This document shows positions 26,122 through 62,700 of a stretch of DNA of 64,000 bases, one piece after another (positions within the stretch are counted from its first letter, which is position 1; every line of letters begins with the position of its first letter). The DNA is from Cyrtodaria siliqua. Its lineage: Eukaryota; Mollusca; Bivalvia; Adapedonta; Hiatellidae. The notes beneath the pieces were generated by a model. That model was not told where the DNA came from and did not search any database. It saw nothing but the letters and a program-made list of their open reading frames with translations. The translations under genes and the position numbers were made by a program. The stretch is from assembly GCA_037043455.1 (NCBI GenBank), contig JAWPHD010010213.1, forward strand, positions 1 to 64,000. The letters run 5' to 3'.

Positions 26122-26961
26122 TGCACTGAGCATGTATACACGGTAATGTGTTTGCACTGAGCATGTATACATGGTAATGTGTCTGCACTGAGCATGTATA
26201 CACGGTAATGTGTTTGCACTGAGCATGTATACACGGTAATGTGTTTGCACTGAGCATGTATACATGGTAATGTGTCTGCACTGAGCATGTATACACGGTA
26301 ATGTGTTTGCACTGAGCATGTATACACTGTAATGTGTTTGCACTGAGCATGTATACATGGTAATGTGTTTGCACTGAGCATGTATACACGGTAATGTGTT
26401 TGCACTGAGCATGTATACATGGTAATGTGTTTGCACTGAGCATGTATACACGGTAATGTGTTTGCACTGAGCATGTATACATGGTAATGTGTTTGCACTG
26501 AGCATGTATACACGGTAATGTGTCTGCACTGAGCATGTATACATGGTAATGTGTTTGCACTGAGCATGTATACATGGTAATGTGTCTGCACTGAGCATGT
26601 ATACACGGTAATGTGTTTGCACTGAGCATGTATACACGGTAATGTGTTTGCACTGAGCATGTATACACGGTAATGTGTTTGCACTGAGCATGTATACACG
26701 GTAATGTGTTTGCACTGAGCATGTATACATGATAATGTGTTTGCACTGAGCATGTATACATGGTAATGTGTTTGCACTGAGCATGTATACATGGTAATGT
26801 GTTTGCACTGAGCATGTATACATGGTAATGTGTTTGCACTGAGCATGTATACATGGTAATGTGTTTGCACTGAGCATGTATACATGGTAATGTGTTTGCA
26901 CTGAGCATGTATACATGGTAATGTGTTTGCACTGAGCATGTATACATGGTAATGTGTTTGC
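26122..26961 (-). repeat. 31-bp satellite, about 27 copies
   Basis: Unit on the + strand: GCACTGAGCATGTATACACG then GTAATGTGTTT. Units vary mainly at two sites, CACGG/CATGG and TTTG/TCTG. The right-hand third is all CATGG. Because 31 is not a multiple of 3 and the unit lacks stops on the - strand, all three reverse frames stay open for 280-330 codons. This is a repeat artefact, not a gene. Confidence 0.95.
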
Positions 26962-27605
26962 AAAGTATTTAAGCCTACAATAATGCATTTGTTTGATATT
27001 TAAGACTAAACAATATGAATTTTCCCTATTGAACAGGAATGGGTACCATGCCCAAAAGTGTGAAAATATCGCTGATGGTTTTCCGGATTGGCTAAGGCAG
27101 TCTAGATTATAGTACAAAAACGTTTAAACAAAGCATTACCATTTTGTCTGGATTAAAAATAATATTATGTCGGCACCTTTTATTATCAATGTTATTAGGC
27201 TTGGCAACAAAATGCAGAATGGTTCGGCACACCCTTTGTATTTTTTGTTTTCTAAGCCTCACCCAATAAACTTGATAGTAAAAGGCACTGAGATAATATT
27301 TTCCATATATAAACGATAAGCCAAGATACGTGTGATGCGATATAATAGGCAATACCAAGAGATATGTGAAAGTAGAATTTCAGGGCCGAAACCAATATTG
27401 GGGGGTAGAAACATAATTTGGCATATTTATTTTCATATTGTTAAATCTGTTATACAAAAAAAAAAACGGACAAAAACATGACAGCTATACGAATACTATG
27501 TGCATATCAACATAAACATGAAATGAACAAACAGTCAGACCTATTCATGTAAGAGTACAAAATGTGTTTGCCAAAATTAACTAGTTGCAATACAATGGAA
27601 CTAAA
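26962..27605. other. Intergenic stretch
   Basis: No gene or bounded repeat recognised. Confidence 0.35.
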
Positions 27606-44700: not shown

Positions 44701-47700
44701 TGTGGGTGGGGGGTGTCAGAAGAATTCTAATTATGTGGGTTGGGGGTGTCAGAAGAATTCGAATTCTGTGGGTGGGGGTGAAATGTAAATCGTATTGAGT
44801 TGTTGGAGGGTGTACATACATGTGATACCTCACGGCGTGAGATGAAATCTCACGGAATTCTAACCTTCCTCCCGGCCCCACGGAATTGTGTGAAAAACTC
44901 CCGTAAAATTGCTAAATCGATTTTTGTATGTTAGCAGATGTTGCTTCTAAAAATAGAATGAATTCAAGAATGACAACTCCTACGAAATTTCGTACTTCGT
45001 ACTCAATTAGATTCGTACTATTTTACATTGTACTCAATTTGATTCATACTATCGGTTATTTTCCAGAGGGGAAGTTATTAGGCAGCCAACCGTGCAGCCG
45101 TTTTTTGCACGGCCGTTTTTGAAAAATCGCGGCCAATATTTGGTGGTGTGGGTGGGGTAAAAAAAAAATTTTTTTTTTTTTTTTTTTTGAAACTCTTACT
45201 TTCTCAATATTTTTATGTTTTGTAAGTATGAAAATATAACAACAAACTTTAAAAGGACACTGTCTGTAAGTATTAAAGCACATTATTGAGCATAACCAAA
45301 TAACAGAGAAATGTTTATCAATTGTTATTAAATAAAACAGGATTGTTTTCTTTATGAATATGGACCCAGGCCTACAGGATTGTTTTCTTTATGAATATGG
45401 ACCCAGGCCTACAGGATTGTTTTCTTTATGAATATGGACCCAGGCCTACAGGATTGTTTTCTTTATGAATATGGACCCAGGCCTACAGGATTGTTTTCTT
45501 TATGGATATGGACCCAGGCCTACAAGATTGTTTTCTTTATGAATATGGACCCAGGCCTACAGGATTGTTTTCTTTATGGATGTAGCAATTATGCTAGAAC
45601 CAGTCCAGGTAAATACGTCACTTCCGGTTTGTAGCCTGGAATTCATTACAAATCCAGAGCTCATACAAGACAGACGTCAACCCAATACAGTGGAAAACCT
45701 CCATCTGACTGTGTCTGACTTCTGATTACGTGAGTTACCATTTGTAATCACTGTATAATATGTATATCTAGGGCAAGATTGCTTTAATGGCGTTGTCGGC
45801 AATAAAGTACCTAGAGGCACATATTGGGAAAATCCCACTTGTGGAATTCACATCGACAGCAAAGTTAGGCTCGATGCAGAATTTCGGTCTGTTGCCGATT
45901 AATTCGGTAGACAACTGTTGTAAACGACTGTTGTAGGTCATTTTATGACATTTTATGTCCGTAGCACTCTAAAAGAGAAAAAACTGTCGGTTTTTATCTT
46001 TTATTGTGTTGCGGTAAACGCAATTTGGCAGGAAGGCAGCCATACCATATCCGGCTTGCTCAACTTGGAAGCATGCGCAGTGATATGTATTTAAGACCAC
46101 GAGGCATTGCAAATTGTAAACATCCGTTTTGCAAACCGGAACATCAAAATCGAAATAAAAACATCGATTAATCAAAGGAAAAACATATAATTTAATACAT
46201 AGAAATCTTTAGAGTTCAAAATTATTATATGATAAACTTTAAAAGAAATATTCAAACTCTAAAATAAAATTATCATTATTATTTTTTTTATTACAGAGCA
46301 CTTTACTCTTACATTGCTCTTAAAGGGATATATACACTACAAGAATATTTTTTTTTTTTAAAGCGACGCTTACTCGCTCACACTAAACGAAAGAGATTGT
46401 CGGTTTCTTCTCTTTTGGTGTGTTGCGGTAAGTAAACTTTTTTAAAGGTGATATATTCTTTAGAAAGGGTACGTAATATTCAGGAATATATTTTTTAAAG
46501 GGATACTTACTCGCTTCCACTAAACGAAAGAAATTGTCGGTTTCTTCTCTTTTGGTGTGTTGCGGTAAGTAAACTTTTTTAAAAGGTGATATATTCTTTA
46601 GAAAGGGTACATAGTATTCAAGAATTTTTTTTTTTAAAGGGATACTTACTCGCTCGCACTAAACGAGGGAAACTGTCGGTTTCGTCTCTTTTGGTGTGTT
46701 GCGGTAAGTAAACTTTTTTAAAGGTGATATATTCTTTAGAAAGGGTACTTAGAATTCAATATTATTTTTTTTAAAGGGATACTTACTCGCTCGCACTAAA
46801 CGAGGGAAACTGTCGGTTTCGTCTCTTTTGGTGTGTTGCGGTAAGTAAACTTTTTTAAAGGTGATATATTCTTTAGAAAGAGTACATGGTATTCAAGATT
46901 TTTTTTTTTTTTAAAGAAACACTTACTCGCTCACACTAAACGAAAGAAATTGTCGGTTTCGTCTCTTTTGGTGTGTTGCGGTAAGTAAACTTTGTTTTTT
47001 AAACTTTTGTTTTTTATACACTTGTTTTTTTGGAAAAAAAAAAATAAATATTTAAAGGGACACTTACTCGCTCACACTAAATGAAAGAAATTGTCGGTTT
47101 CTTCTCTTTTGTTGTGTTGCGGTAAGGGATTTTTTTTATTTATTTTTTTAAAAAGAATATGTACACTTATGAACAATTTTTTAAAGGGACACTTACTCGC
47201 AAACACTAAACGAGAGAAATTGTCGGTTTCTTCTCTTTTATTGTGTGCGGTAAGGAATATATATATTTTTTTTAAAGGGATACTTCCTATATTGTTCGAA
47301 TATTTTTTTTTATTACTTTTAGATAACTGATATTTTTTTTCCACAGAGTAATTACATCTCTAACTGGTTCTAGTTAAAGTGCAGGACCACGAAGAGCATA
47401 TTAGTAACCATCCTAGTGTAACACCACAGGATGGTGGGATAAGGGATACAAGACAAAAAGCCTAGTGTGTCATCACAGGCTTATTCATCGATAAGGTTTG
47501 GTTTTCAATTAAATCAAAACTACCAGTTATCAATTATACAATATCTTTCGTTATTTATAAATATGTAAAATAATTAACAATGTAAGTAAAATTATCTTTC
47601 AGAAATTATGTAATTTTTCATTTTTTTATTTATTTTTTTTCTATTTTTTTATTCTCATCACTGTTAATTCTAATCATGTACTCGGGTCAGTCTCCTTCGG

Positions 47701-50700
47701 GTCAGTCTTACTTGGGGTCAAAGGTTAGAATTAATTTTTGTGCAGCAAGGGATTTGATGTCATTACCGGGTATCGGTAATAAAATTGCGCATTATATAAT
47801 GCAATTTAGGGAAGCAAATGGGAACCTATCTCGGGAGGATTTAATTTCAATGAACATAAGGTCTAATGTTAACTTGGTCGACTGTATAGATTTTACATTT
47901 TGGCAACCAAATACTATACAAAGAGACCCTATGGCCCTAGAAAATAGATCTGCCCTAGATATAGCATCAGGGCAAGATAACTCAAGGGCATTGAAAGAGG
48001 AAAAGGAAACGAGGGAGTTCATGACTCGCACAATAGATGCGATACATTCCAGCCCATACACCGGCCCAGTCGCACAAAATCAACAAACAAGTGAGAACAT
48101 ATCTGAAATGTCTCACAGCGTTAAAACTCCACAAACACAAAATCCAGAAGGAACTAGTGGACAACAACCAATTGCGTCCCCATCGTCTAAGGTGATAGAA
48201 AGGGGTAACAATCAAGAATCGCAATTGAGAATTGACCCTTATTCATCTAGAGGAGACGACAGCAAATATCGAGATACAACTATCCGATATGATCCTTCGC
48301 GAGCTAGGATGACAGATGGGAGCACATATCGAGAACAACAGTTCCAGTATGATGCATCTCTCAAAACACCAGTTTGGTCTACAGGTATACCACCGTCAAA
48401 TGTACAAAGAGACGCGTATAGTGGTGGTTATTACGGTGTCAACAACCAACAAACATACCCAGGCTATATACCTATAGATATGGCTCAAAGACCGTACCCA
48501 CCACCAATTGGTTACCCGCCACCAATGCAACTGGTGGAACCTCCACGACCTTTCAAGGATCCAGTAAAGCCACGGTCCGTATCAATGCCAAAGTCTATTT
48601 CCTTTGATGGCAAAGGAAACTGGCAAGCATTTAAGACCAAATTCACATCTTTCGCTGATGGTCAGGCATGGACATCAAAAGAAAGGAGGAACAACTTGTG
48701 CTGGAGTTTAGAAGGAAGAGCTAGTGAATTCTACTCTAGATTGATTGAAAGAGAGCCTGGAATGGACCTCTTCGATGTATTAAGACAAATTGGAGAAACG
48801 ATTTGATATGAAAGAACTTCCTGAGACGGCTCAAGTTAGTTTTTCATATGCAACACAATCAGTTGCAGTATCAACAGTAGAATGGGCGGATAGAATCGTG
48901 TGTTTGGCAATGAAAGCTTATCCGGATTTGACCGACACGCAGATATACAAACAAGCCATACTGAAATTCTGCCAAGGATGTCTAGATAGAACAGCCGCAC
49001 AATATGCTCTCAACCTTAGACCGCAAACCATGGAGGAAGCCATAGACAAAATTCGGTGGTACCAACATACGGACAGAATTATGTTTCATCGACCGACCAC
49101 CAAAAGAGACCCCATGAAAGTAATGGTGACTAGAGCATTTGACCCATATTATGAAAGGGAAAGTGAGGGAGAGGAGTCGTTCAATGTTATAACTCCCAGA
49201 GTTGCTAGGCTTGCACCACAACCTGAGGTTCAAAGGAAAGTGCGTTTCGAAGAAAAACCTCAGGTAATACCGAAAACCGGGAATATTGAAGAAAAGTCCT
49301 CAGAATGGAAGAAAAAAACGAAGCGTCTAGAGAATAGAATGGACAGTATGGATACCAAATTGGGCAGCATGGATTCCAAAATAACTAGTTTATTGGAAGC
49401 CATGGAGAGGCTGACGAATTCTCGTAGAGAAGCACGTTCCCAATCCCGGTCCCCATCCAGGTCGCCGAACCGAATGAGGTCAGTGGTATGTTACGAGTGC
49501 AATCAAGAAGGTCACTATAAAACAAATTGCCCCCGGTTAAGGAAAGAAGAGAAGAAAGTGTCTCAGGTAGTCGAGGATGATCAAACCTATGAAGAGGAGG
49601 AGGACAGCGACGTTTATTCCAGTGATGAGGATTTAAACCAACCAGGGTTGATCAGTCAGGCCTGAGATCAACCCAGGACGAGGAAGGCCATCCAATAGAA
49701 TCCGATGATCTAGTGCAGTCCGATAACAATGAAGCAACAACATTCGAGAACATCCACATAACCAAGTCCATCGATGAGTTGCCATCAGATATTGAGATTA
49801 GCACTAGTTTTGAAGAGCCCATCTTTGTAAACCAGTTGCGCTCAGAGTCAATGTTAAAAGTGCCTGTGACAATAGAAGAAATGGAGTTAAAAGCGGTAGT
49901 CGACACAGCAGCTCAGGTGATTATAATATCAGACAAGATATATAACCAACTTGGGAGAAAAACCACCCACAATTAGAAAGATTGTTCTACAGACTGCTGG
50001 AAGACAAATGAAAATACCCGGTTCGGTTATAGGACCGGTTTCATTGACCCTGGGAAAGAGGAAATATCTCGAAGAAGTGTATGTAGCGCCCATAGAAGAT
50101 GACATGCTTCTAGGATTGGATTTCTTGAGGAAGCAATGTATCACCCTCGATCTGCAGAAAACTGAGATGATCTTGGGAGAAGAATGTATTTCAATGGTGT
50201 TAGGAGCGCCCACGATGCGAGAAAGAGTAGCCAATGTAGTGGTATGCAAAAGAACAGTAGTTCCACCAAATTCAGTAAAGAGGGTAGAATGTTCAGTCAG
50301 TAGGCCGATGTCGCAGTTCATGATAGAGCCAACAAAAGACATGCCAGGGGCAATGCCAAGAACGGTGCATTCTGGAAATACACAACCAAAGGTTTGTGTA
50401 GTTAATGTGTCAGATCAAAACATTATTTTGATGGGCAAACAGCACATTGGATTTGCAACAGAGGTTACGATGGTGTCCATGCCAATGGAAGAGGATGAAC
50501 ATGGCTATGAAGGGATAATCATTCAAAAGATATCTCACGACGAGCAGCCAGCTAAGGAAATTCCACCCCACCTACAAGGTTTATTAGAGCGATCCGTGAT
50601 AAACTTAAACAATGAAGAAAAGGAACAGCTCACCGATTTACTTGTGGAATTCGAAGATGTGTTTGCCAAAGATGATCTAGATCTTGGAAACTTTACAGAA

Positions 50701-53700
50701 GTTGAACATTCTATTGATACGGGTAACGAAAGACCAGTTAAGCAACGTATGCGACGGACACCGATCTGTTTTGCTGGTGAAGAAAAGGCAAATCTAGAAA
50801 AGATGCTAAAAACAAAAGTGGTTAAACCCTCTATGTCGGAATGGGCATCCCCTCCAGTCCTGATCCGAAAACGAGATGGGAGCGTCAGGTGGTGTGTAGA
50901 CTACAGAGCCCTCAATGCTGTAACAGTCAAGGATGTTTTCCCATTGCCACTAGTAGACGACTGTCTAGACACTCTGGCGGGTAACACATTATTTTCCAAA
51001 CTCGACGCTAACTCCGCTTATTGGCAGGTCAAATTAAAACCGGAGGACCGGAAGAAGACTGCTTTTTGTACGAAGTATGGATTATATGAGTTTGTTCGGA
51101 TGCCGTTCGGATTGACCAACGCCCCGGCTACCTATTGTCGAGTGATGAACTTAGTTCTAAGAGGTTTGAATTGGGATATTGTCCTCGCATTCCTTGACGA
51201 CATCTTAGTTTTGGGTAGGATCTTTGCTGAGCATTTAAAGAATCTCAGAAAAGTGCTGGAGCGATTTAGAACCTTTCGACTAAAATTAAAACCCAGTAAA
51301 TGTGTCCTATTCCAAATAAAGGTAGAATTCCTGGGAAGAATGGTTGGACCAGAGGGTTTAGCATTAGGAGAAAGTCATATCAAAGCTGTACAGGATTGGT
51401 CCGTACCCAAAAATACAAAACAGGTTGAACAATTTCTGGGATTGGTAAATTACCACAGGAGCTTCATTAAAGATTTTGCTCATCTGGCAGCGCCTTTGTA
51501 CAGCATTACAGGGAAGAATAAGTTTGAGTGGGGAGAGGCACAGGAAGTTGCTTTTATAAACATCAAGAGAGCATTAACAACAACACCAGTGTTGGCACTC
51601 CCGAATAAAACTGACTATTTCATCCTGGATACAGATGCGTCCGAGGTAGCCATAGGTGCAGAGCTGTTACAACTTCAAGCTGGCCTAGAAAAAGTGATTT
51701 GTTTCGGCAGTTTATCACTATCCCATGAACAAAGACGGTATTGTGTGACTAGAAAGGAACTGTTAGCAGTTGTGCGATTTACAAGACAATATAGACATTA
51801 TCTATTAGGTAGAGAGTTCACGGTGCGAACAGATCATAGTAGTCTGACCTGGCTTCTCAACTTCAAAGAACCCCAAGGGCAACTGGCCAGATGGATTGAG
51901 GAGCTGAGTCAATATCACCTGGTCATAGAACACCGCCCTGGAAAGAAACATGGAAATGCAGATGCCCTGTCAAGACGACCAGAAGAAGACGCGGTCTGTC
52001 CCGAATACAGGCTGGGTATGAAGCTAGCAGACTTGCCATGTTATCCTTGCAAGTATTGTGAGAAAGCACATAGAAACTGGTCAGACTTTGCAGAGACGGT
52101 GGACGATGTCAAACCACTTGCGACTGGTTCCAAACGCACAGTGTTCCAAGGAGAAGAAATAAAAGGTCAGGTCATACAGATCAAGACTACATGGCCTGAA
52201 CAGCAGGTGAAAAGCGTAACTTTAGACAATGATGACTGGGATATTCTAAAAGAACAACAAGAGGACACTGATTTGAAGTTAATAGCTGCCTGGTTGGAAC
52301 AGCAGAAAATCCCAGAGGAGGATGTGCTATTTTCTTCGAGCCCTGCAGCAAAGTATTACTGGATCAACAAGGAGGTGTTCTGCTTGAAGTCACAAGTAAT
52401 ATGGAAGAAATTGCTCGACGGTCAAACCCTTTTAGTGGTACCAAAATCATTGCAGACAGTTATGATACACGCCAATCATGATATACCATCAGCGGGACAC
52501 CAGGGCGTGGATAGAACCAAAGCACGTATCAAAGAAAAATATTACTGGTATGGAATGTCTATAGCCATTAAAAATTATGTGGGTACCTGCGGACTGTGCA
52601 ACCGTAATAAAGGGGGAAATAGACTAGGCCGGTTCCCTCTCACAAATTTCCAGGCAGGAGCCCCAATGGAGAGAGTTCATTTAGATTTTATGGGACCTCT
52701 TCCGAAGACACCTCAGGGAAATGAGTATGTGCTGATGATGGTAGACCAGTTCACCAAATGGATAGAATGCATACCTTTGCCATCACAGACAGCTGAGATA
52801 ACCGCCCATGCAGCCGTCACGGAATTCTTCAGCAGATTTGGGTATCCATTTCAGATCCATACCGACCAAGGTAGGAACTTTGAAAGTCAATTGTTCAGCA
52901 CAATTTGCAAACTTTTGGGAATCCACAAGTCTAGAACCACTCCTTACCGGCCCTCCGCAAACGGCCAGGTAGAGCGTTTCAATAGAACATTGATGGATGC
53001 GGTCCGGTGTTTTGTGGGTAACCAAAACAGCTGGGATAAGCATCTAGCACAGTTGGCGGGAGCTATAAGGTCCTCGGTCAATCGTCAGACCGGATTTACG
53101 CCAAACAGATTAATGTTGGGTAGGGAATTGAACCAGCCAGCAGATTTATTGTTTCCAGGAGCACCCAGATCAGTGGCAGAACAATCCCCGGATGAGTATG
53201 TTAAAGAGTTTGGAGGGGCAATCACGACCGCTCATGAAGTAGCTCGAGAAACTCTCAAGACAGCACAAGAACGGATGAAAAGAGATTATGATGTCAAGGT
53301 TCTTGTGAAAACATACAAAGTAGGAGACCCAGTGTTTGTGTTGGACACAGCATCTACAAAAGGTACAAGCAAGAAGCTTTGTCCTAAGTATAAAGGCCCT
53401 GGAATTGTTGTGGAAAAAATAACAGCGGCGTTGTTTCGCGTAAAGATCCGAAACAAGGAATTTGTTGTAAACCACGATCGCCTGAAGTTCTGTTCGGACA
53501 GAGAGTTGCCTGCGTGGATTATCCGACTTCAGAAAGATCCCACTCTCTTAACAGCAGAACGTCCTGTAAATAAAGCGGGGGCCCTTGAGGACGAAAAATT
53601 GTATTGTACTTGCCGAAAGCCAGATGATGGGAAATTAATGGTCCAGTGTGATGACTGCCTAGATTGGTTTCACGGGGCTTGTGTAGGGGTTACTAGCAAA

Positions 53701-56700
53701 ATGGTTAAGCGGTTAGGGAAATATGCTTGCCCAAATTGTAAGGCTGACCCAATCGCGAGACCTGAACCGAGTCCTTAATTATTTTAGGTATACGGCCATG
53801 ATGGAGGTCCCGAAGGATGAAGACTGGAAGCGGGTGATGTCAAAGGGAGAGAAGGACATCCGGTCTTCAACCTCCAGAGGGATTCTCGTGCCTGCGGTAC
53901 AGTTAGCCAGGGACCTAGGAATGATCAGAGGCATATCCACAGCGTCCTACTTGCAGCTGGCCAAAGGGCAATATGGTCTGGCCGTAGAGAGGAAATATGT
54001 GCCATGGATACGAGACTTCCAATGGGCATGTGAGATATTTCTGAGCCGGAAGGAAATAAAGGACAATTTTCCTATTCCAAAGGACATCAGCCAACCTAAG
54101 CAGCGGTCAACTAAACAGCGAGTTGCTAAACCAGCGACCGCCGTTAGAACCCAGGAGGCTGATGCGAAAGTCAGCGATCAACCAAAACAACGGTCAGTGC
54201 CACAGCGAGTTGCTGATCTAGCGACCATCGTCGCTAGATCAGCGACCGTCACTAGACCAAAGGATGCCGAGGCTGACACTAATCCAACCGGTAAGGTATC
54301 TGAGATGGAAATAGATATCCGGATACCACAAACAAGGGAAGGGTACAGCGTTTCACCTGCTCGAGCAAAACCGATCATGATTTCACGGGCATGCGAGACC
54401 TCTCCCTCCCTCCTTCGAGATTATCTGTTGCCCAGGGAGGCATCTATACCAAAGAAGAAGTCCATCATACCAAGAGCTGAGACTGGTCACAGATCTATAG
54501 GCCCGAGACCCAAGACTGGACCAACTCCCTTGGTGGTGGATTTCAGAATATCACGGCCAGTCGTGGAAAAGGGGCGATCATTAAGCCATAAACGGTATGA
54601 GACGCGGGTGTTCTACAACAAGGACTACCAGGGATCTTTGAGTCCACCTAGGGACCGGAGAAGCCCATCCAGGGAACACCAGGAACGCCGAAAAAGTCGA
54701 AAAGATTCCTACAACAAGGATCACCGGGGATCTTTGAGTCCACCTATGGACCGGAGAAATCCCTCCAGGAAATCTAAGGAACACCAGGGACACCGAAAAG
54801 ATGTGCGTCCTCATCCGGACCGGAGAGTTTCACGTTCGCCACAGAGGGCAGTGAAATACTACTCACCGGTGTATGAACGACGACGAAGTTCGCGTTCATC
54901 CCGGAGAAGTCCATCCAGGAAACATCCAGGACGACGCCATAGTAGTTCAAGTTCCCCTTTGGATCGGAGGTATGCCCAACAGGTTCATCGAATTTCACGA
55001 CGCCAATCACCTTCGCACCGGGATCACAGAGGTTCGCATTCTTCTAGGAGATCTCCAGTAGACCCTGGTAGAAGACGCCCTCTGGATGATCCCATAGACA
55101 AGGATCGAAGAGCTCCACTCAAGAGGGCACAAGATTCCCCCCTACCAACGGAACCAGCCAAGAAGATTAGAAGATCTTGCTGTCCTTTAGAGGATTGTGG
55201 AATTTATGCCCGCAGAGTGAAACGACATGTTTACTCTAAACACATACCGGTAGTGTTTCACGATTTCGAGACCCCGGAAATGCTGAGTAGTCGTTCGTTT
55301 CAGGAGCGCCGTCTATTAGGACTCAAACTCTTGGCTACCATGGTCCTTGGTACTGATGGAACTCCAGAGAGACTGGTAAGGTTTGTCGAGACGAACCTGT
55401 GGATTGACCCGCTAGCTACTATAACCCCCGAGACCGGGAGAGCGATGCTAAGCTTGTGTCAAGCCGCAGTGGATTGATCCAGGGAAGTTTACCCTGAATC
55501 CTGTCAACTCGCCAGCCGTGCTCATCCATTGGAGACCATTGTCATTCCTTATGAGTCGTCTCACAGGACCGGACTCTAGACTAATGTGGGAGCATTTTGG
55601 ACCGGATGTTGAACCAGTTCAAACAACTGCGTCTCAATCTGTTCCTGGGTTCAGCAAGTCCCGAAGGAATCGACCTAATCCCATCAGACGGGCCAAGGCC
55701 AAGAATCGGGAAACACACGTCTCTGAAGAGAATCAGGAAACCCTAGCCAAGGAGGAGTCGGTATCCAAGGAACGAAGCCTAGTGTTGACTTCTACTACAG
55801 GAGTACCAGTCTCGTTGACTTCATCCACAAGTGGATCACTATCAAGGATGTCCCAGTCTGTGTTCGCTTGTGGAACAACAACTGGACTGAAGCTGTCCCT
55901 TGTGGAAGAGCCCCTACCAAGGCAGGTACAGGATCTAACTCTTGTATCGGACGTCACCATGAAGGACCTGGAATTGGATTATCAGGATAGTCCAGACAAA
56001 CCTAATGCTGGATCCATCGAAATTCCATCCCAGAGTGAAGAAGAGGCTTTGCTGAGATCCGATCATGGCAGTCTAGATGGGTCACCTACCAAATTAAGGA
56101 CAGACGTCATTGTGACAGAGCCCAGTCTCGTTGAGTCTCCTTCAGAGCTAACGACAGACGGGAGTGTTGCAAGTGCCGTGTATACAAGGACTCTTCCTGC
56201 TATAACCGTTTTGGGGTCATGTGTGTCCCCTTCGGGACCCAGGCCCTCCTACGCAGCAATGGCAAAGAGATCTCCGGTTGCCCGAATAAATCCTCAAGCT
56301 CGACAAAGTCCCGAGACGAAACCTCCGGAACCAGCTCTCTTGACCAGCAGAAACAACGAGGCGTTTGATAGCCACTTTCATCTCGATCGTCTTTCTAAGA
56401 CCTTAAACGTGTCAATGAAGGACCTAGAGAGAGTGGTTACTCAAAGCACTGAGGTAATATCTCAACACCCAACAACCCTGGTGGGAGGAGTAATGGTTTT
56501 TTGTGACCCAATAAATCATGGGAACATACCGTGGGGTTTAGGTAGTCAATGGAGAGTTGCTGTAGGCGTTCATCCTAAGAAGATCGAGCAACTTACCCCG
56601 GCAAGATTTGATCGTCTGGCCCAAATTCTGATGAAACCAGAAGTGGTAGCTTTAGGGGAAGTAGGTCTAGATTATACCGATCCCTCTACAACATGGGAAA

Positions 56701-59700
56701 ATCAGACCCGAACGTTGGAAAAGGTATTGGGCCTGTGCAATCCAAGGCTGGTGTTAGTCTTACACATAAGAGGCAGTAGAGGAGACCATCTGGCAGAAGT
56801 CTCAACTCACTGCCTGGACATAGTAAAGCGTCACTGCCCACCAGAACAAGGAATACATTTACACTGTTTCGGTGGGGACCTGGACCAGCTAAAAGCATGG
56901 AGAAGTGCGTTTCCGAATTGCTACTTCGGATTTACTGGGCAAGTTTCTCGGTTTAATAAAGCCCAACGAGAAGCACTTAAGGCCGTCCCTCAAGATCGAC
57001 TCCTCATAGAGACCGATGCACCCTATTTACCCATGCTCATTGGGTTGGTTGTCACAACACCGGCTTACATTGGAGACGTGGCATACCAGGTGGCCCGGGT
57101 ACGACTAGAACCAGTTTCAGTCGTTATCCAGACTTCCAGGGTGAATGGGGAACAACTCTATGTGGCCTCATCCGTGGAGGAATCAACGACGAACATGTAA
57201 AAAGAACATGTACAGTCCCCGTACAGTCCCCGGACTAGAATTTATCTCAGTCCATTCTGGGTGAGGAAACTAAAAAGAGGCTAGGACTAGAATCTAATTC
57301 AGTCCCAGTTTACAAGAATACTTCTCTCAAGCTGAAGACTCACAAAGGACTAGAGCTTGTCTCAGCCCACAATCCAGGTAATCAAAGGACTAGAGCTTGT
57401 CTCAGCCCACAATCCAGGTAATCAAAGAATTCCACGAAGTTCTACAAAAGAGAACGGGGAGGTGTGTAGCAATTATGCTAGAACCAGTCCAGGTAAATAC
57501 GTCACTTCCGGTTTGTAGCCTGGAATTCATTACAAATCCAGAGCTCATACAAGACAGACGTCAACCCAATACAGTGCAAAACCTCCATCTGACTGTGTCT
57601 GACTTCTGATTACGTGAGTTACCATTTGTAATCACTGTATAATATGTATATCTAGGGCAAGATTGCTTTATGGATATGGACCCAGGCCTACATGATTGTT
57701 TTCTTTATGGATATGGACCCAGGCCTACAGGATTGTTTTCTTTATGAATACGGACCCAGGCCTACAGGATTGTTTTCTTTATGAATATGGACCCAGGCCT
57801 ACAGGATTGTTTTCTTTATGAATATGAACCCAGGCCTACAGGATTGTTTTCTTTATAAATATGACCCAGGCCTACAAGATTGTTTTCTTTGTGAATATGG
57901 ACCCCGGCCTACAGGATTGTTTTCTTTATGGATATGGACCCAGGCCTACAGGATTGTTATCTTTATGAATATGGACCCAGGCCTACAGGATTGTTTTCTT
58001 TATGAATATGGACCCAGGCCTACAGGATTGTTTTCTTTATGAATATGGACCCAGGCCTACAGGATTGTTTTCTTTATGAATATGGACCCAGGCCTACAGG
58101 ATTGTTTTCTTTATGGATATGGACCCAGGCCTACAAGATTGTTTTCTTTAGGAATATGGACCCAGGCCTACAGGATTGTTTTCTTTATGGATATGGACCC
58201 AGGCCTACAAGATTGTTTTCTTTATGGATATGGACCCAGGCCTGCAGGATTGTTTTCTTTATGAATATGGACCCAGGCCTACAGGATTGTTTTCTTTATG
58301 AATATGGACCCAGGCCTACAGGATTGTTTTCTTTATGAATATGAACCCAGGCCTACAGGATTGTTTTCTTTATGGATATGGACCCAGGCCTACAGGATTG
58401 TTATCTTTATGAATATGCAGTGCTCACACTGGCCATTTTAACTTAATAGCCGCACATTTTTTAGTTAAGAAAATAATAGCCAACTTTAATGCGTAAGAAA
58501 ATTTGGTCAGTCGTAAGAGCCAAATTTTCAATCAGGTTTTATTAGACTATATCCTCTGGATATATTTTTCTATTTGTCACCACTTTCTCCATTTTGGTGA
58601 AATAGTAGGAGCCTAGACTAAAATTCATTTAAAAGTAGGATTCCAGGAACTCCTTACACATTGATAAAACAAAGAATGATGGATTAAATAATGAATAGAA
58701 GTATACTTTATGTATCTGTCATCTATATATCGTTTTTCTTTCCAGCAACATGTATTTTTAAAGGACAGTTTTTCTCATTCGATTAGGTAAAAAAAAAAAA
58801 AAAAAAAAAATAATCAGAAATTATGTACCATCCGAAGTACTATGACACCGCACTTTTACGGCCCGAAAATTTCGAACATTTAATCGAAATACCATTAATT
58901 ACAAAAAAAATTCATGCATTAATGTGTTTTGAATGCCAAAAATGGTCTTTCTTATCAAAGGGGAAAGAAAACACAACCCTAATAGTAGGATAATGTAGTT
59001 TTATGTCATTAATTGTCGATCTCAAAGTTGTGACAAATTGAAACTGCCGACACGAAGCCAGGCACAATATTCAAACTTCTTATTGTTTCAATCTTTTTAT
59101 TACTTTATTGCAAGTGTTTTCACAGTTCACAATACACATGGGAGTTTGCTACCTATCGGGATCATCATGGGATAGCTATTTATGCAGATGATAGTAGCGA
59201 CTATGTTCATAATAGTGCGTGCACAAATTAATTTCATCTCTTTGTAGTTTGTGTACAGAAAAACAAACAGGAAACTGTACCTACTGTTGGATGTGTAACG
59301 GATTGTCTGATTGGTCAATCGCCCGAAAGATAACAAATAACGGCATATCTGATTGGCTATTCGGTTCATTAATCACATGATGTTTGCGTGTATCAACAAT
59401 GCCGATTATCCGACAACGAAGTGCCAATTAAGGGAATTAACAACTTTTTACAAGCGATAATTGATAAGTGCGTGACGACATCACAGTCGGCGTGAACGGA
59501 TTATGTAATGTTTATTGCGGTCATTTATTACTTGGGGTGTCAAACAGACAATAATCGCCATTTCTTGTCGACATTTCTTTAAAATAATCGACAGTATTAT
59601 AAAATAATCGCAAATGGCGACCATGGCGTATAGTAGCGTGAGCACTGAATATGGACCCAGGCCTACAGGATTGTTTTCTTTATGAATATGGACCGAGGCC

Positions 59701-62700
59701 TACAGGATTGTTTTCTTTATGAATATGGACCCAGGCCTACAGGATTGTTTTCTTTATGAATATGGACCCAGGCCTACAAGATTGTTTTCTTTATGAATAT
59801 GGACCCAGGCCTACAGGATTGTTTTCTTTATGGATATGGACCCAGGCCTATAGGATTGTTTTCTTTATGAATGTGGACCCAGGCCTACAGGATTGTTTTC
59901 TTTATGAATATGGACCCAGGCCTACAAGATTGTTTTCTTTATGAATATGGACCCAGGCCTACAGGATTGTTTTCTTTATGAATATGGACCCAGGCCTACA
60001 AGATTGTTTTCTTTATGAATATGGACCCAGGCCTACAGGATTGTTTTCTTTATGAATATGGACCCAGGCCTACAGGATTGTTTTCTTTATGAATATGGAC
60101 CCAGGCCTACAAGATTGTTTTCTTTATGAATATAGACCCAATCCTCAGGTCCATATTAAATGTTACCGCTAGGAAAAAGCTTATCTGGAGCACTGATTAT
60201 AAGAGTGATTTGAAGGTCAATTTATCAAATTTACTAAATTTGTAAAAAGTTCCAATTCTGTGGGTGGGGGGTTCTTGGCGAATTCAAATTCTGTGGGTGG
60301 GGTGTGGAAAATAAATCGAATTCTGTGATGGGGGGTGTTTTTTTGACTGTCATTCTTGCCCCCCCCCCAGGCCTTTTTTCCTGGAACAGCCCTAAGGAAC
60401 ATATAGAGAATATTGTCTCGGACAAATTTCGGTAGTTTTCGTAGATTTGATTTGTTTCTTGTGGCCAAAATCCATGTTTTAAGAAAAAGGGTGCTAACTC
60501 CCTGTACTGAACTTTTCACAAACATCTTTGTTTGGGCTATGGTTGTCGGTCTATCTAATTATTCTTAAAACATCATTAATTTTTCCTGCATCGAATCAGC
60601 GGAAGTTGTTTTTTTCTTCAGAATACTTATTATTAAAATTCCTCATGTTAATGCTGAAAAACATTTGGCTGAAACAAGTGCCCCGAACAATAAGATTGTC
60701 AAACATACAAACCGTTTAATCCATGTATCAATGGCATTATCATCCTTAGAAGACCAGCGTATCACCGTTGCGAAGTAATGTGCCTTCATGGCCATGACGT
60801 CGTCGGTGTCGCGAGCCTTCATTGCTTTCTCACAAATGACGTCGAGAACCTTACACACTTTGTTACTCTCCTGTATCATCAGTGGGTTTTTCTTTAAATG
60901 TAAGGATACCTACAACAGAAGTATATTATCAGCAATTTATAATGCACTTGGCAAAAATCCTGCAATTTAATTGGTTGACATTAACAAATTTGCAACGAAT
61001 AATTAGAGCACAATATGTCACAAATGAAATCACGTGATGTTAAACCGTCAAAAGTGTAACAACATATTGAGTCATTGAAAATAAATTAGTAACAGATTAA
61101 ATGGTATTGATATTTTGACTTTTGCGACCGTATATACGAGTTATTTTTTATTTAACTATTGTAATTCGCGTTTAATTGTTCTGTTGACAAAACAAAATTT
61201 AATGGTCGAAGGTTAAATTTTAATGGCTACACGAGTGCACAAATTGGGGCAATTAATGACTGATTTCAAAACTGGCTAACCCGTTTCATTGTTTTTGAAA
61301 GTTTGACTGATAAATGCATTGAATGATTGAAATGAAACTAAATGACAGAATATGGCATTGTGTGACAAATCTATCAAGTTATAACTCTGTGGTTAAAATT
61401 AGTGGTTTTCAAACTTGTCCAAGATTTCATTTATATATAGACCCCGGCAAAGTTTGGTAAAAATTAAATGCAAAACGGCATTGATAGAGTATTGATAAGG
61501 CAGAATATGGCTCTTTTCATTAAAACAAGGGCCACAACTCTGTTTTTTTAATAACCAATTTTCCCCCCAACTTATTATTGATATATAGAACCTGACAAAG
61601 TTTGGTAAACATTAACAGCGAAATGAAAATGCTATAGTATTAAAAATAACTAGAAATGTGTCCATGGGACACGGATGCCCCACTTAAAACAATCCGCATT
61701 TTAAGTCACTAAAACGGATGAAAAAAGGTCAGATAATACAAAATCAATTTTGAAGGAGAATCGATATGCATATCTTGACATTATAGGTAACCATCCTGTA
61801 AAGTTTCAAAGCAATCGATTGAAAACTGGGAGGAGATTATACACACACAAACTATTTTAAAGTGAAATTTGACGAAAAAAGGGCCGTAACTTTGGTAATA
61901 CAAGATCGATTTTAACGCAGAATTGAAATGCACATCTTGACACAAGCATCCTGTAATGTTTCAAAACATTTGGTTGAAAACTGGGGAAGGAGATTGACAC
62001 ACAAACTATTTTAACATAATATATGACGAAAAAAGGACAGTAACTCTGGTAATACACGGTCGATTTTAAAGCAGAATTGATATACACATTTAGACATCAT
62101 AGGTATGCATCCTGTAATGTTTGGAAACAATCGGTTGAAAACTGTGGGAGGAGACAGACACAAACACTTTTCAGGACGGAGGGCAGATACTTGGACAGTC
62201 GGAACGGACATGGCTTGCGCTATATGCCCCCTCACCATTCAGTGGTAGGGGGCATAAAAGTTAATGGATGATGAACGGTAGACAACGTGCCATCGCATAA
62301 GCTCATCTGGATTTGGCCAGACCTAAAAATGCAACAATTGTTACCTTGACTGGGTGCATATTGGCCATATTGAGCAATTCTAACAACGCAGGCAACACAT
62401 TGGGGGGCAACTTGGGCTCTGTCTCTTGTCCTGTAATATACAGATGCTTATAAAGTACAGTGTTGAAATGTGCACAATTCACATAATGAGTTATCAAATA
62501 CCAGGGTCTTCCCCAGGCCATTAAGGCATAATGGCACCACTACTCCTTAATGTCAAACAGGTGCTTGCCACTACTCCTTAAATTCTTGCCACTATCTCTT
62601 AACTTTTCAAAATCAATCTTGATCCAATTACAAAATGTACATATTTTTTTAAATAATCTTTTAAAAAGTAACAATCTGTAAAAAAAAAAAAGCCATCAAT

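What the first reader, a model, noticed from the sequence alone, without database searches (positions are those of the whole stretch)
45581..57670. Young 12-kb Gypsy element with four non-standard protein modules
Seen: Gag with an N-terminal helix-hairpin-helix, integrase ending in a PHD finger, an Arg/Ser-rich C2H2 ORF, and a TatD nuclease ORF, all between LTRs that differ by one base. Gypsy elements normally carry only gag-pol, sometimes env or a chromodomain. Together the modules suggest an element managing its own DNA binding, chromatin targeting and DNA processing. I know no named family with this set, but absence from memory is not proof of novelty.
Basis: partly seen in the sequence, partly recalled or inferred. 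Interest (0 to 1): 0.92.

Follow-up and report, generated by a model that had tools for sequence, protein, structure and literature searches.

The report
Gypsy retrotransposon with PHD and TatD
This is a recently inserted jumping gene that carries, besides the usual copy-and-insert machinery, a domain that resembles readers of active-gene chromatin and a large extra gene ending in a nuclease, and related genes occur in shellfish, sea urchins and starfish.

Summary
In detail: 45581-57670 is a 12,090-bp Ty3/Gypsy element with 206-bp LTRs (one mismatch), cleanly inserted in a 37-bp satellite. Gag starts with an HhH, integrase ends in a PHD finger, and the 3' end encodes an RS-rich C2H2 region and a TatD nuclease.

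Corrections: (1) ORF3 and ORF4 are one gene; many relatives carry both as a single protein. (2) The copy is frame-broken inside Gag, protease and ORF3/4 (indels or assembly errors). (3) The modules are not peculiar to it: 116 of 120 listed integrase relatives carry PHD, and 87 proteins match the TatD part, named ones mostly from molluscs and echinoderms. Four contig lengths are shared by pol and TatD proteins (0.26 expected), one Acanthaster model fuses both, and their distances correlate over six pairs.

The PHD resembles H3K4me3 readers with cage-type residues kept; TatD keeps its class II metal ligands. Likely, PHD tethers integration to active chromatin and the 3' protein is a nuclear nuclease acting on element nucleic acids; the second step is the weaker. 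My searches of open papers returned no description of this set. Copies in the same genome could not be examined.

The parts
45337..45580 (.). 37-bp satellite, left flank; last 5 bases ATGGA are the target duplication
   Evidence: TRF
45581..45786 (+). 5' LTR, 206 bp
45788..45805 (+). candidate primer-binding site TGGCGTTGTCGG... (tRNA not identified)
   Evidence: position and TGG start; assignment inferred
45945..47257 (+). 5' leader with eight copies of a stem-loop (one at 45945-46020, seven tandem at 46354-47257); in seven of eight the stem pairs CUUAC...CGC with GCGGUAAG, a splice-donor-like sequence
47676..48803 (+). Gag, first half (open frame from ATG)
47718..47843 (+). HhH (HHH_3, ComEA type) at the Gag N-terminus
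48784..49662 (+). Gag, second half in another frame, with CCHC knuckle 49486-49533; contiguous with the first half in P0141, so the frame change in 48784-48806 breaks Gag in this copy
49629..49973 (+). start of protease; frame changes again within 49927-49976 although relatives read protease and RT in one frame
49927..53778 (+). Pol: rest of protease, RT (50863-51336), RNase H (51529-51915), integrase H2C2 (52438-52611) and core (52660-52953)
53605..53739 (+). PHD finger at the integrase C-terminus
53779..53787 (+). splice-acceptor-like TTATTTTAG between the Pol stop and the ORF3 ATGs (53798, 53801)
   Evidence: function inferred
53798..55474 (+). first half of the ORF3/4 gene: helical N-terminal domain (about 53801-54073), RS-rich linker (54467-55156), C2H2-like motif (55178-55249)
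   Evidence: domain limits carried over from P0005
55452..57197 (+). second half of the same gene in another frame: rest of the C2H2/HWR domain (HWR motif about 55497-55565), linker, TatD nuclease (56364-57161)
57446..57464 (+). purine-rich tract before the 3' LTR
   Evidence: assignment inferred
57465..57670 (+). 3' LTR, 206 bp
57670..58417 (.). target duplication and 37-bp satellite, right flank

Best explanation
A recently inserted, now frame-broken copy of a Ty3/Gypsy LTR retrotransposon from a widespread invertebrate lineage whose integrase ends in a PHD finger and in which at least some relatives carry a 3' gene for a TatD nuclease. Shown: architecture, clean insertion, homology of the modules, recurrence of PHD and of the 3' gene in many relatives, conservation of the catalytic and cage-type residues. 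Inferred, in falling order of support: (a) the ORF3/4 protein is a nuclear, nucleic-acid-binding, active class II TatD nuclease (about 0.7) that acts on the element's own reverse-transcription products or RNA:DNA hybrids around nuclear entry and integration (about 0.4); (b) the PHD binds H3K4me3 and tethers the integration complex to active promoter chromatin, as chromodomains do for other marks (about 0.65); (c) the ORF3/4 protein is made from a spliced RNA using a leader donor and the acceptor after pol (about 0.4); (d) the Gag HhH adds nucleic-acid binding to the particle (about 0.4).
Against: The single insertion seen is in satellite DNA, not at a promoter. Linkage of PHD-pol and TatD in other genomes rests on equal contig lengths and one gene model, not on DNA that I read; so the share of PHD elements with the TatD gene is unknown. 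The PHD count comes from a query that included the PHD and from the 120 best of 1544 hits, so it is biased upward. A strict scan finds all five TatD ligand motifs in 64 of 87 relatives (partial proteins included), 78 to 86 of 87 for each alone. A few weak relatives at the tail (P0084, P0086, P0087) carry other domains and may be cellular. The Acanthaster PHD is cut short in its gene model. This copy cannot make intact Gag, protease or ORF3/4 protein as it reads. No activity, expression or splicing was tested. Nothing shows that the nuclease acts on the element's own nucleic acids.
Confidence: 0.55

Rival explanations
1. The ORF3/4 protein is a counter-defence factor: a TATDN2-like nuclease that removes R-loops or degrades RNAs that feed host silencing, rather than a replication enzyme.
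For: Human TATDN2 is reported as a structure-specific RNase resolving R-loops, and tatdn2 is needed in germ cells of medaka (PMC12709183, abstract and passages); TATDN2 proteins share class II HxH and an extended N-terminal region often with a nuclear localization signal (PMC10085689, passages). An orchid Gypsy element carries an active m6A demethylase with a proposed role against host surveillance (PMC9289625, abstract).
Against: No direct evidence of host targets; descent from TATDN2 specifically was not shown here.
Confidence: 0.25
2. The ORF3/4 protein works like CERV of Cer1: a nuclear protein from a spliced RNA that lets unspliced genomic RNA leave the nucleus; the TatD fold is used mainly for RNA binding.
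For: CERV is a 3' ORF product of a Gypsy element, made by splicing and required for genomic RNA export (PMC10309623, title, start of abstract and passages). Here the leader has five GGTAAGT donors inside strong stem-loops and an acceptor-like TTATTTTAG ends 10 bases before the ORF3 ATG; ORF3 is RS-rich.
Against: Catalytic residues of TatD are kept across distant relatives, which a purely structural role does not need. GGTAAGT as such is not over-represented in the window (9 against 7.3 expected). Similarity to CERV was not tested.
Confidence: 0.15
3. The PHD does not read H3K4me3 but another partner (unmodified H3, a host factor, or integrase itself), as the vestigial chromodomain of Ty3 contacts Brf1 and DNA rather than histones.
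For: The Ty3 chromodomain makes histone-independent contacts with Brf1 and DNA (PMC8632968, passages). The single insertion seen lies in satellite.
Against: Sequence is closest to H3K4me3-reading fingers and the Tyr/Phe, Met and Trp positions are conserved.
Confidence: 0.25
4. The extra genes are a one-off capture, host gene fragment or assembly chimera in this copy.
For: The copy is broken in several frames and no second copy in the same genome could be examined (genome search did not complete).
Against: Everything lies between near-identical LTRs; PHD and the 3' gene recur in independent contigs and species; ORF4 relatives are 27-50% identical yet keep the catalytic residues.
Confidence: 0.03

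Closest known systems
Chromoviruses (Ty3/Gypsy with C-terminal chromodomain)
   Same: Histone-reader-type module fused at the integrase C-terminus
   Different: The module is a PHD of the H3K4me3-reader type; no chromodomain match in Pfam at E 0.1
Ectocarpus Gypsy-10_Ec32 with Tudor domain (PMC12477816, passages)
   Same: A different histone reader on the Gypsy integrase C-terminus
   Different: Brown alga, Tudor not PHD; no TatD gene in the passages seen; the word PHD does not occur in that text
CR1-like non-LTR elements with PHD and esterase (Kapitonov and Jurka 2003; title seen in a reference list; paper not read)
   Same: PHD finger carried by a retroelement
   Different: Non-LTR elements without integrase (recalled)
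Bdelloid Juno and Vesta elements with ORF3 DEDDy exonuclease (PMC5408684, part 1 of 5 and passages)
   Same: LTR element with a nuclease gene after pol
   Different: DEDDy fold, not TatD; no chromodomain there; PHD occurs in that text only in a reference title
Orchid Gypsy with AlkB m6A demethylase (PMC9289625, abstract and passages)
   Same: Extra enzymatic ORF in a large Gypsy element
   Different: Different enzyme, plants; TatD and PHD do not occur in that text
Cer1 CERV (PMC10309623, passages)
   Same: 3' ORF in env position, nuclear, spliced RNA
   Different: No nuclease domain described in the passages seen; nematode
MolGy clades of mollusc Gypsy elements (PMC6238403, passages)
   Same: May include this lineage (inference)
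   Different: Defined by RT/RNase H only; PHD and chromodomain do not occur in that text; assignment not testable here
TATDN2 (host nuclease)
   Same: Class II TatD after a long, disordered N-terminal region
   Different: Here joined to a conserved N-terminal helical domain and a C2H2/HWR domain and carried by an LTR element; orthology untested

Membership tests
Ty3/Gypsy LTR retrotransposon | LTRs, target duplication, primer-binding site and purine tract | tested here: met
   the primer tRNA was not identified
Ty3/Gypsy LTR retrotransposon | Pol order protease-RT-RNase H-integrase with Gypsy-type RT | tested here: met
   best solved match Ty3 Gag-Pol E 3.6e-109
Ty3/Gypsy LTR retrotransposon | Intact coding capacity of this copy (not needed for membership) | tested here: not met
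   frame changes inside Gag, protease and ORF3/4 relative to relatives
Chromovirus | C-terminal integrase chromodomain | tested here: not met
   no chromodomain at E 0.1; PHD instead
Named Gypsy clade (C-clade, MolGy1-16) | Position in RT/RNase H tree with reference elements | not testable with these tools
   no reference set held; see PMC6238403
Env-bearing Gypsy (errantivirus type) | Third gene is an envelope glycoprotein | tested here: not met
   third gene ends in TatD and no envelope family is matched
H3K4me3-reader PHD | Zinc-ligand pattern and cage positions (Tyr/Phe, Met, Trp; recalled) | tested here: met
H3K4me3-reader PHD | Binding of H3K4me3 peptide | not testable with these tools
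   needs an assay
TatD nuclease, class II | HxH plus Glu, two His and Asp ligands on a TatD barrel | tested here: met
   window ORF4 holds all of them; conservation; fold of the relative P0005
TATDN2 orthologue | Groups with TATDN2 in a TatD tree | not tested
   no TATDN2 sequence was at hand; solved matches include TATDN1 but no TATDN2
Family with HhH Gag, PHD integrase and TatD gene | All three in one element of another genome | tested here: inconclusive

The most novel reading that the evidence does not exclude
An old, widespread animal Gypsy lineage evolved a self-contained nuclear programme: an integrase that reads H3K4me3 to insert at active promoters, the mirror image of chromoviruses that use heterochromatin, together with a dedicated TatD nuclease, a kind that my searches did not find reported in any retroelement, which matures or protects its RNA:DNA intermediates; several genes annotated as TATDN2 or TatD in marine invertebrates would be parts of this element.
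Probability: 0.3. Interest if true: 0.82.

Novelty: new variant of a known kind. Interest (0 to 1): 0.62.

Why it matters
Natural PHD-integrases would be a ready test of histone-mark-guided integration outside chromodomains and could inform targeted integration. A conserved TatD gene in a retroelement would tie a poorly understood nuclease family to reverse transcription or to host surveillance. It also warns that proteins annotated as TATDN2 or TatD hydrolases in molluscs, echinoderms and symbiont metagenome bins can be retroelement genes.

Tried and rejected
Rejected: ORF3 and ORF4 as two genes. One-off capture. Single-protein scans of viral contigs and genome contigs found no relative. Alignment scans gave three loci of genome contigs: L001, a mussel-symbiont contig with a Pol 40% identical over 694 residues, L002 and L003, none with a PHD motif; and seven TatD loci of viral contigs at 25-30% identity, taken to be bacterial or phage TatDs; one search found none. 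The Gag N-terminal piece had 1059 candidates, none at E 0.001, so the HhH is known from one relative only. Rfam found nothing in 45000-58500. PDB fold comparison was filled by TatD; the N-terminal and C2H2/HWR domains were not searched alone, so nothing is claimed about their folds. Foldseek searches of the P0005 model and a model of the N-terminal domain did not complete. The 5' stem-loop array folds well (z -5.6 for one copy) but covariation is thin: 2 of 23 pairs with changes on both sides, covariation term -0.01. PMC3601003, PMC6875170, PMC3286476 (passages) and PMC6338049 (part 1 of 4) gave nothing on PHD or TatD in Gypsy elements; PMC10294476 was not read (one search failed). Most subscription journals, Repbase, Dfam and GyDB are not held, so absence from print is only as wide as that.
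Full report
What is there. The element runs from 45581 to 57670. Its LTRs (45581-45786, 57465-57670) are 206 bp with one difference. It sits in a 37-bp satellite (45337-45578 and 57666-58417) and is flanked by ATGGA on both sides; joining the flanks restores the satellite in register (79 of 83 positions at lag 37). A TGG-starting primer-binding candidate follows the 5' LTR and a purine tract precedes the 3' LTR. The insertion is therefore real and recent; with one difference in 206 bp no useful age can be given.

Genes. Open frames and Pfam give Gag with an N-terminal HhH (HHH_3; weak ComEA matches below cut-off in NCBIfam; EEPD1 and ComEA among solved structures) and a CCHC knuckle; [quoted passage not shown] a PHD at the integrase C-terminus; an RS-rich ORF3 without a Pfam match at E 0.1; and a TatD domain in ORF4.

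The copy is broken. Gag halves are contiguous in P0141 but in different frames here; protease and RT are in one frame in relatives but not here; ORF3/4 likewise. The breaks lie in 48784-48806, 49927-49976 and 55452-55477. The frames on either side are long and open, so fresh indels or assembly errors are both possible. A Gag-to-protease frame change at 49629-49665 may be natural.

Spread. A search with the integrase-to-PHD part of Pol gave 1544 hits, 120 listed. By my count of that table 116 of 120 carry PF00628; a motif scan finds it in 115 of 120, in most about 20-30 residues from the C-terminus. The query contained the PHD and the list is the top of the ranking, so the true share in the wider Gypsy group is lower and unknown; the more distant Pol on L001 (40% identical) shows no PHD motif. 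Named hosts include Pinctada, Haliotis, Nucella and Lytechinus for Pol, and Ruditapes, Mya, Magallana, Pecten, Mizuhopecten, Dreissena, Diadema, Patiria and Acanthaster for TatD. Several proteins labelled as Sedimenticola or Thiodiazotropha MAG products are probably host contamination (inference). The host of the window was not identified here.

Linkage of the two genes elsewhere. P0024 from Acanthaster is one gene model with integrase, a shortened PHD, C2H2/HWR and TatD. Among 64 TatD and 94 Pol rows with contigs up to 100 kb, four exact length matches occur (8390, 8316, 9947, 9881) where near-misses predict 0.26 (which corrects). Over six pol/TatD pairs (the window, those four and Acanthaster), integrase and TatD identities correlate at r 0.96 (Mantel 4 of 720) and 0.84 without the closest pair. 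This fits joint inheritance; I did not read the DNA between the genes in any relative.

How it probably works. The PHD is closest to CFP1, PHF2, DIDO1, BPTF, SPP1, KDM7A, PHF8, TAF3 and ING fingers, which from general knowledge read H3K4me3. In the 103 of 120 relatives fitting a strict motif, the Met position is Met in all 103, the residue before the first Cys is Tyr or Phe in 100, and the Trp is part of the motif. ING2 PHD-LEDGF fusions send HIV-1 integration to start sites (PMC8149907, passages), so a natural PHD-integrase would be expected to do the same. Against this, the one insertion at hand is in satellite. TatD keeps the class II HxH, Glu, His, His and Asp residues as invariant or at least 90% conserved columns in 45 aligned proteins, class II as defined in PMC10085689 (passages); a strict scan of all 87, partial proteins included, finds all five motifs in 64. 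An active metal-dependent nuclease is therefore likely. TATDN1, TATDN3 and bacterial TatDs show 3'-5' exonuclease and AP-endonuclease activity (same paper), and human TATDN2 is reported to resolve R-loops (PMC12709183, passages). I take processing of the element's own RNA:DNA or cDNA intermediates in the nucleus as most likely, with counter-defence and CERV-like RNA export (PMC10309623, passages) as rivals.

Expression. The leader has eight copies of a stem-loop, seven of which enclose GGUAAG; one copy folds at -33 kcal/mol against -16.3 with sd 3.0 for shuffles, though covariation is thin. An acceptor-like TTATTTTAG lies between the Pol stop and the ORF3 ATG. Splicing of an ORF3/4 RNA is plausible but untested; GGTAAGT is not over-represented in the window as a whole.

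Known or new. Close analogues are chromoviruses, a Tudor-bearing Ectocarpus Gypsy (PMC12477816, passages), CR1-like non-LTR elements with PHD (title only), bdelloid elements with a DEDDy nuclease ORF3 (PMC5408684, part 1 of 5 and passages) and the orchid AlkB Gypsy (PMC9289625, abstract and passages). The mollusc survey that named MolGy clades uses RT/RNase H only, and the words PHD and chromodomain do not occur in its text (PMC6238403). A bivalve survey limited LTR distance to 11,000 bases (PMC8905726, passages); here it is 11,884, so that setting would probably miss this element. None of the topical paper searches returned the set in listings, abstract starts or the papers opened. I file it as a new variant of a known kind.

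Noticed in passing
window 45945-47257: Eight copies of a strong stem-loop (seven in tandem, about 137-bp period) in the element's 5' leader, seven enclosing a splice-donor-like GGTAAG; few compensatory changes.
   Followed up: partly
P0147 (relative of Pol), residues about 1063-1232: A KptA/Tpt1 RNA 2'-phosphotransferase domain lies between integrase and the PHD in a related Pol protein, so this lineage may accept other enzyme modules.
   Followed up: partly
P0002, P0003, P0004, P0008, P0026, P0062, P0102, P0127, P0148: Proteins filed under Sedimenticola and Thiodiazotropha metagenome bins are relatives of the element's genes; likely host DNA in symbiont bins.
   Followed up: no
literature: PMC6962438 (one passage): The giant squid Hox cluster figure lists an ORF named TATDN2 beside transposon-related genes; it could be a gene of this kind of element.
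   Followed up: no
window 59646-60140: A further array of the same 37-bp satellite beyond the element.
   Followed up: no
window 26122-26962: A 31-bp tandem array open in several frames on the minus strand (long spurious ORFs).
   Followed up: no
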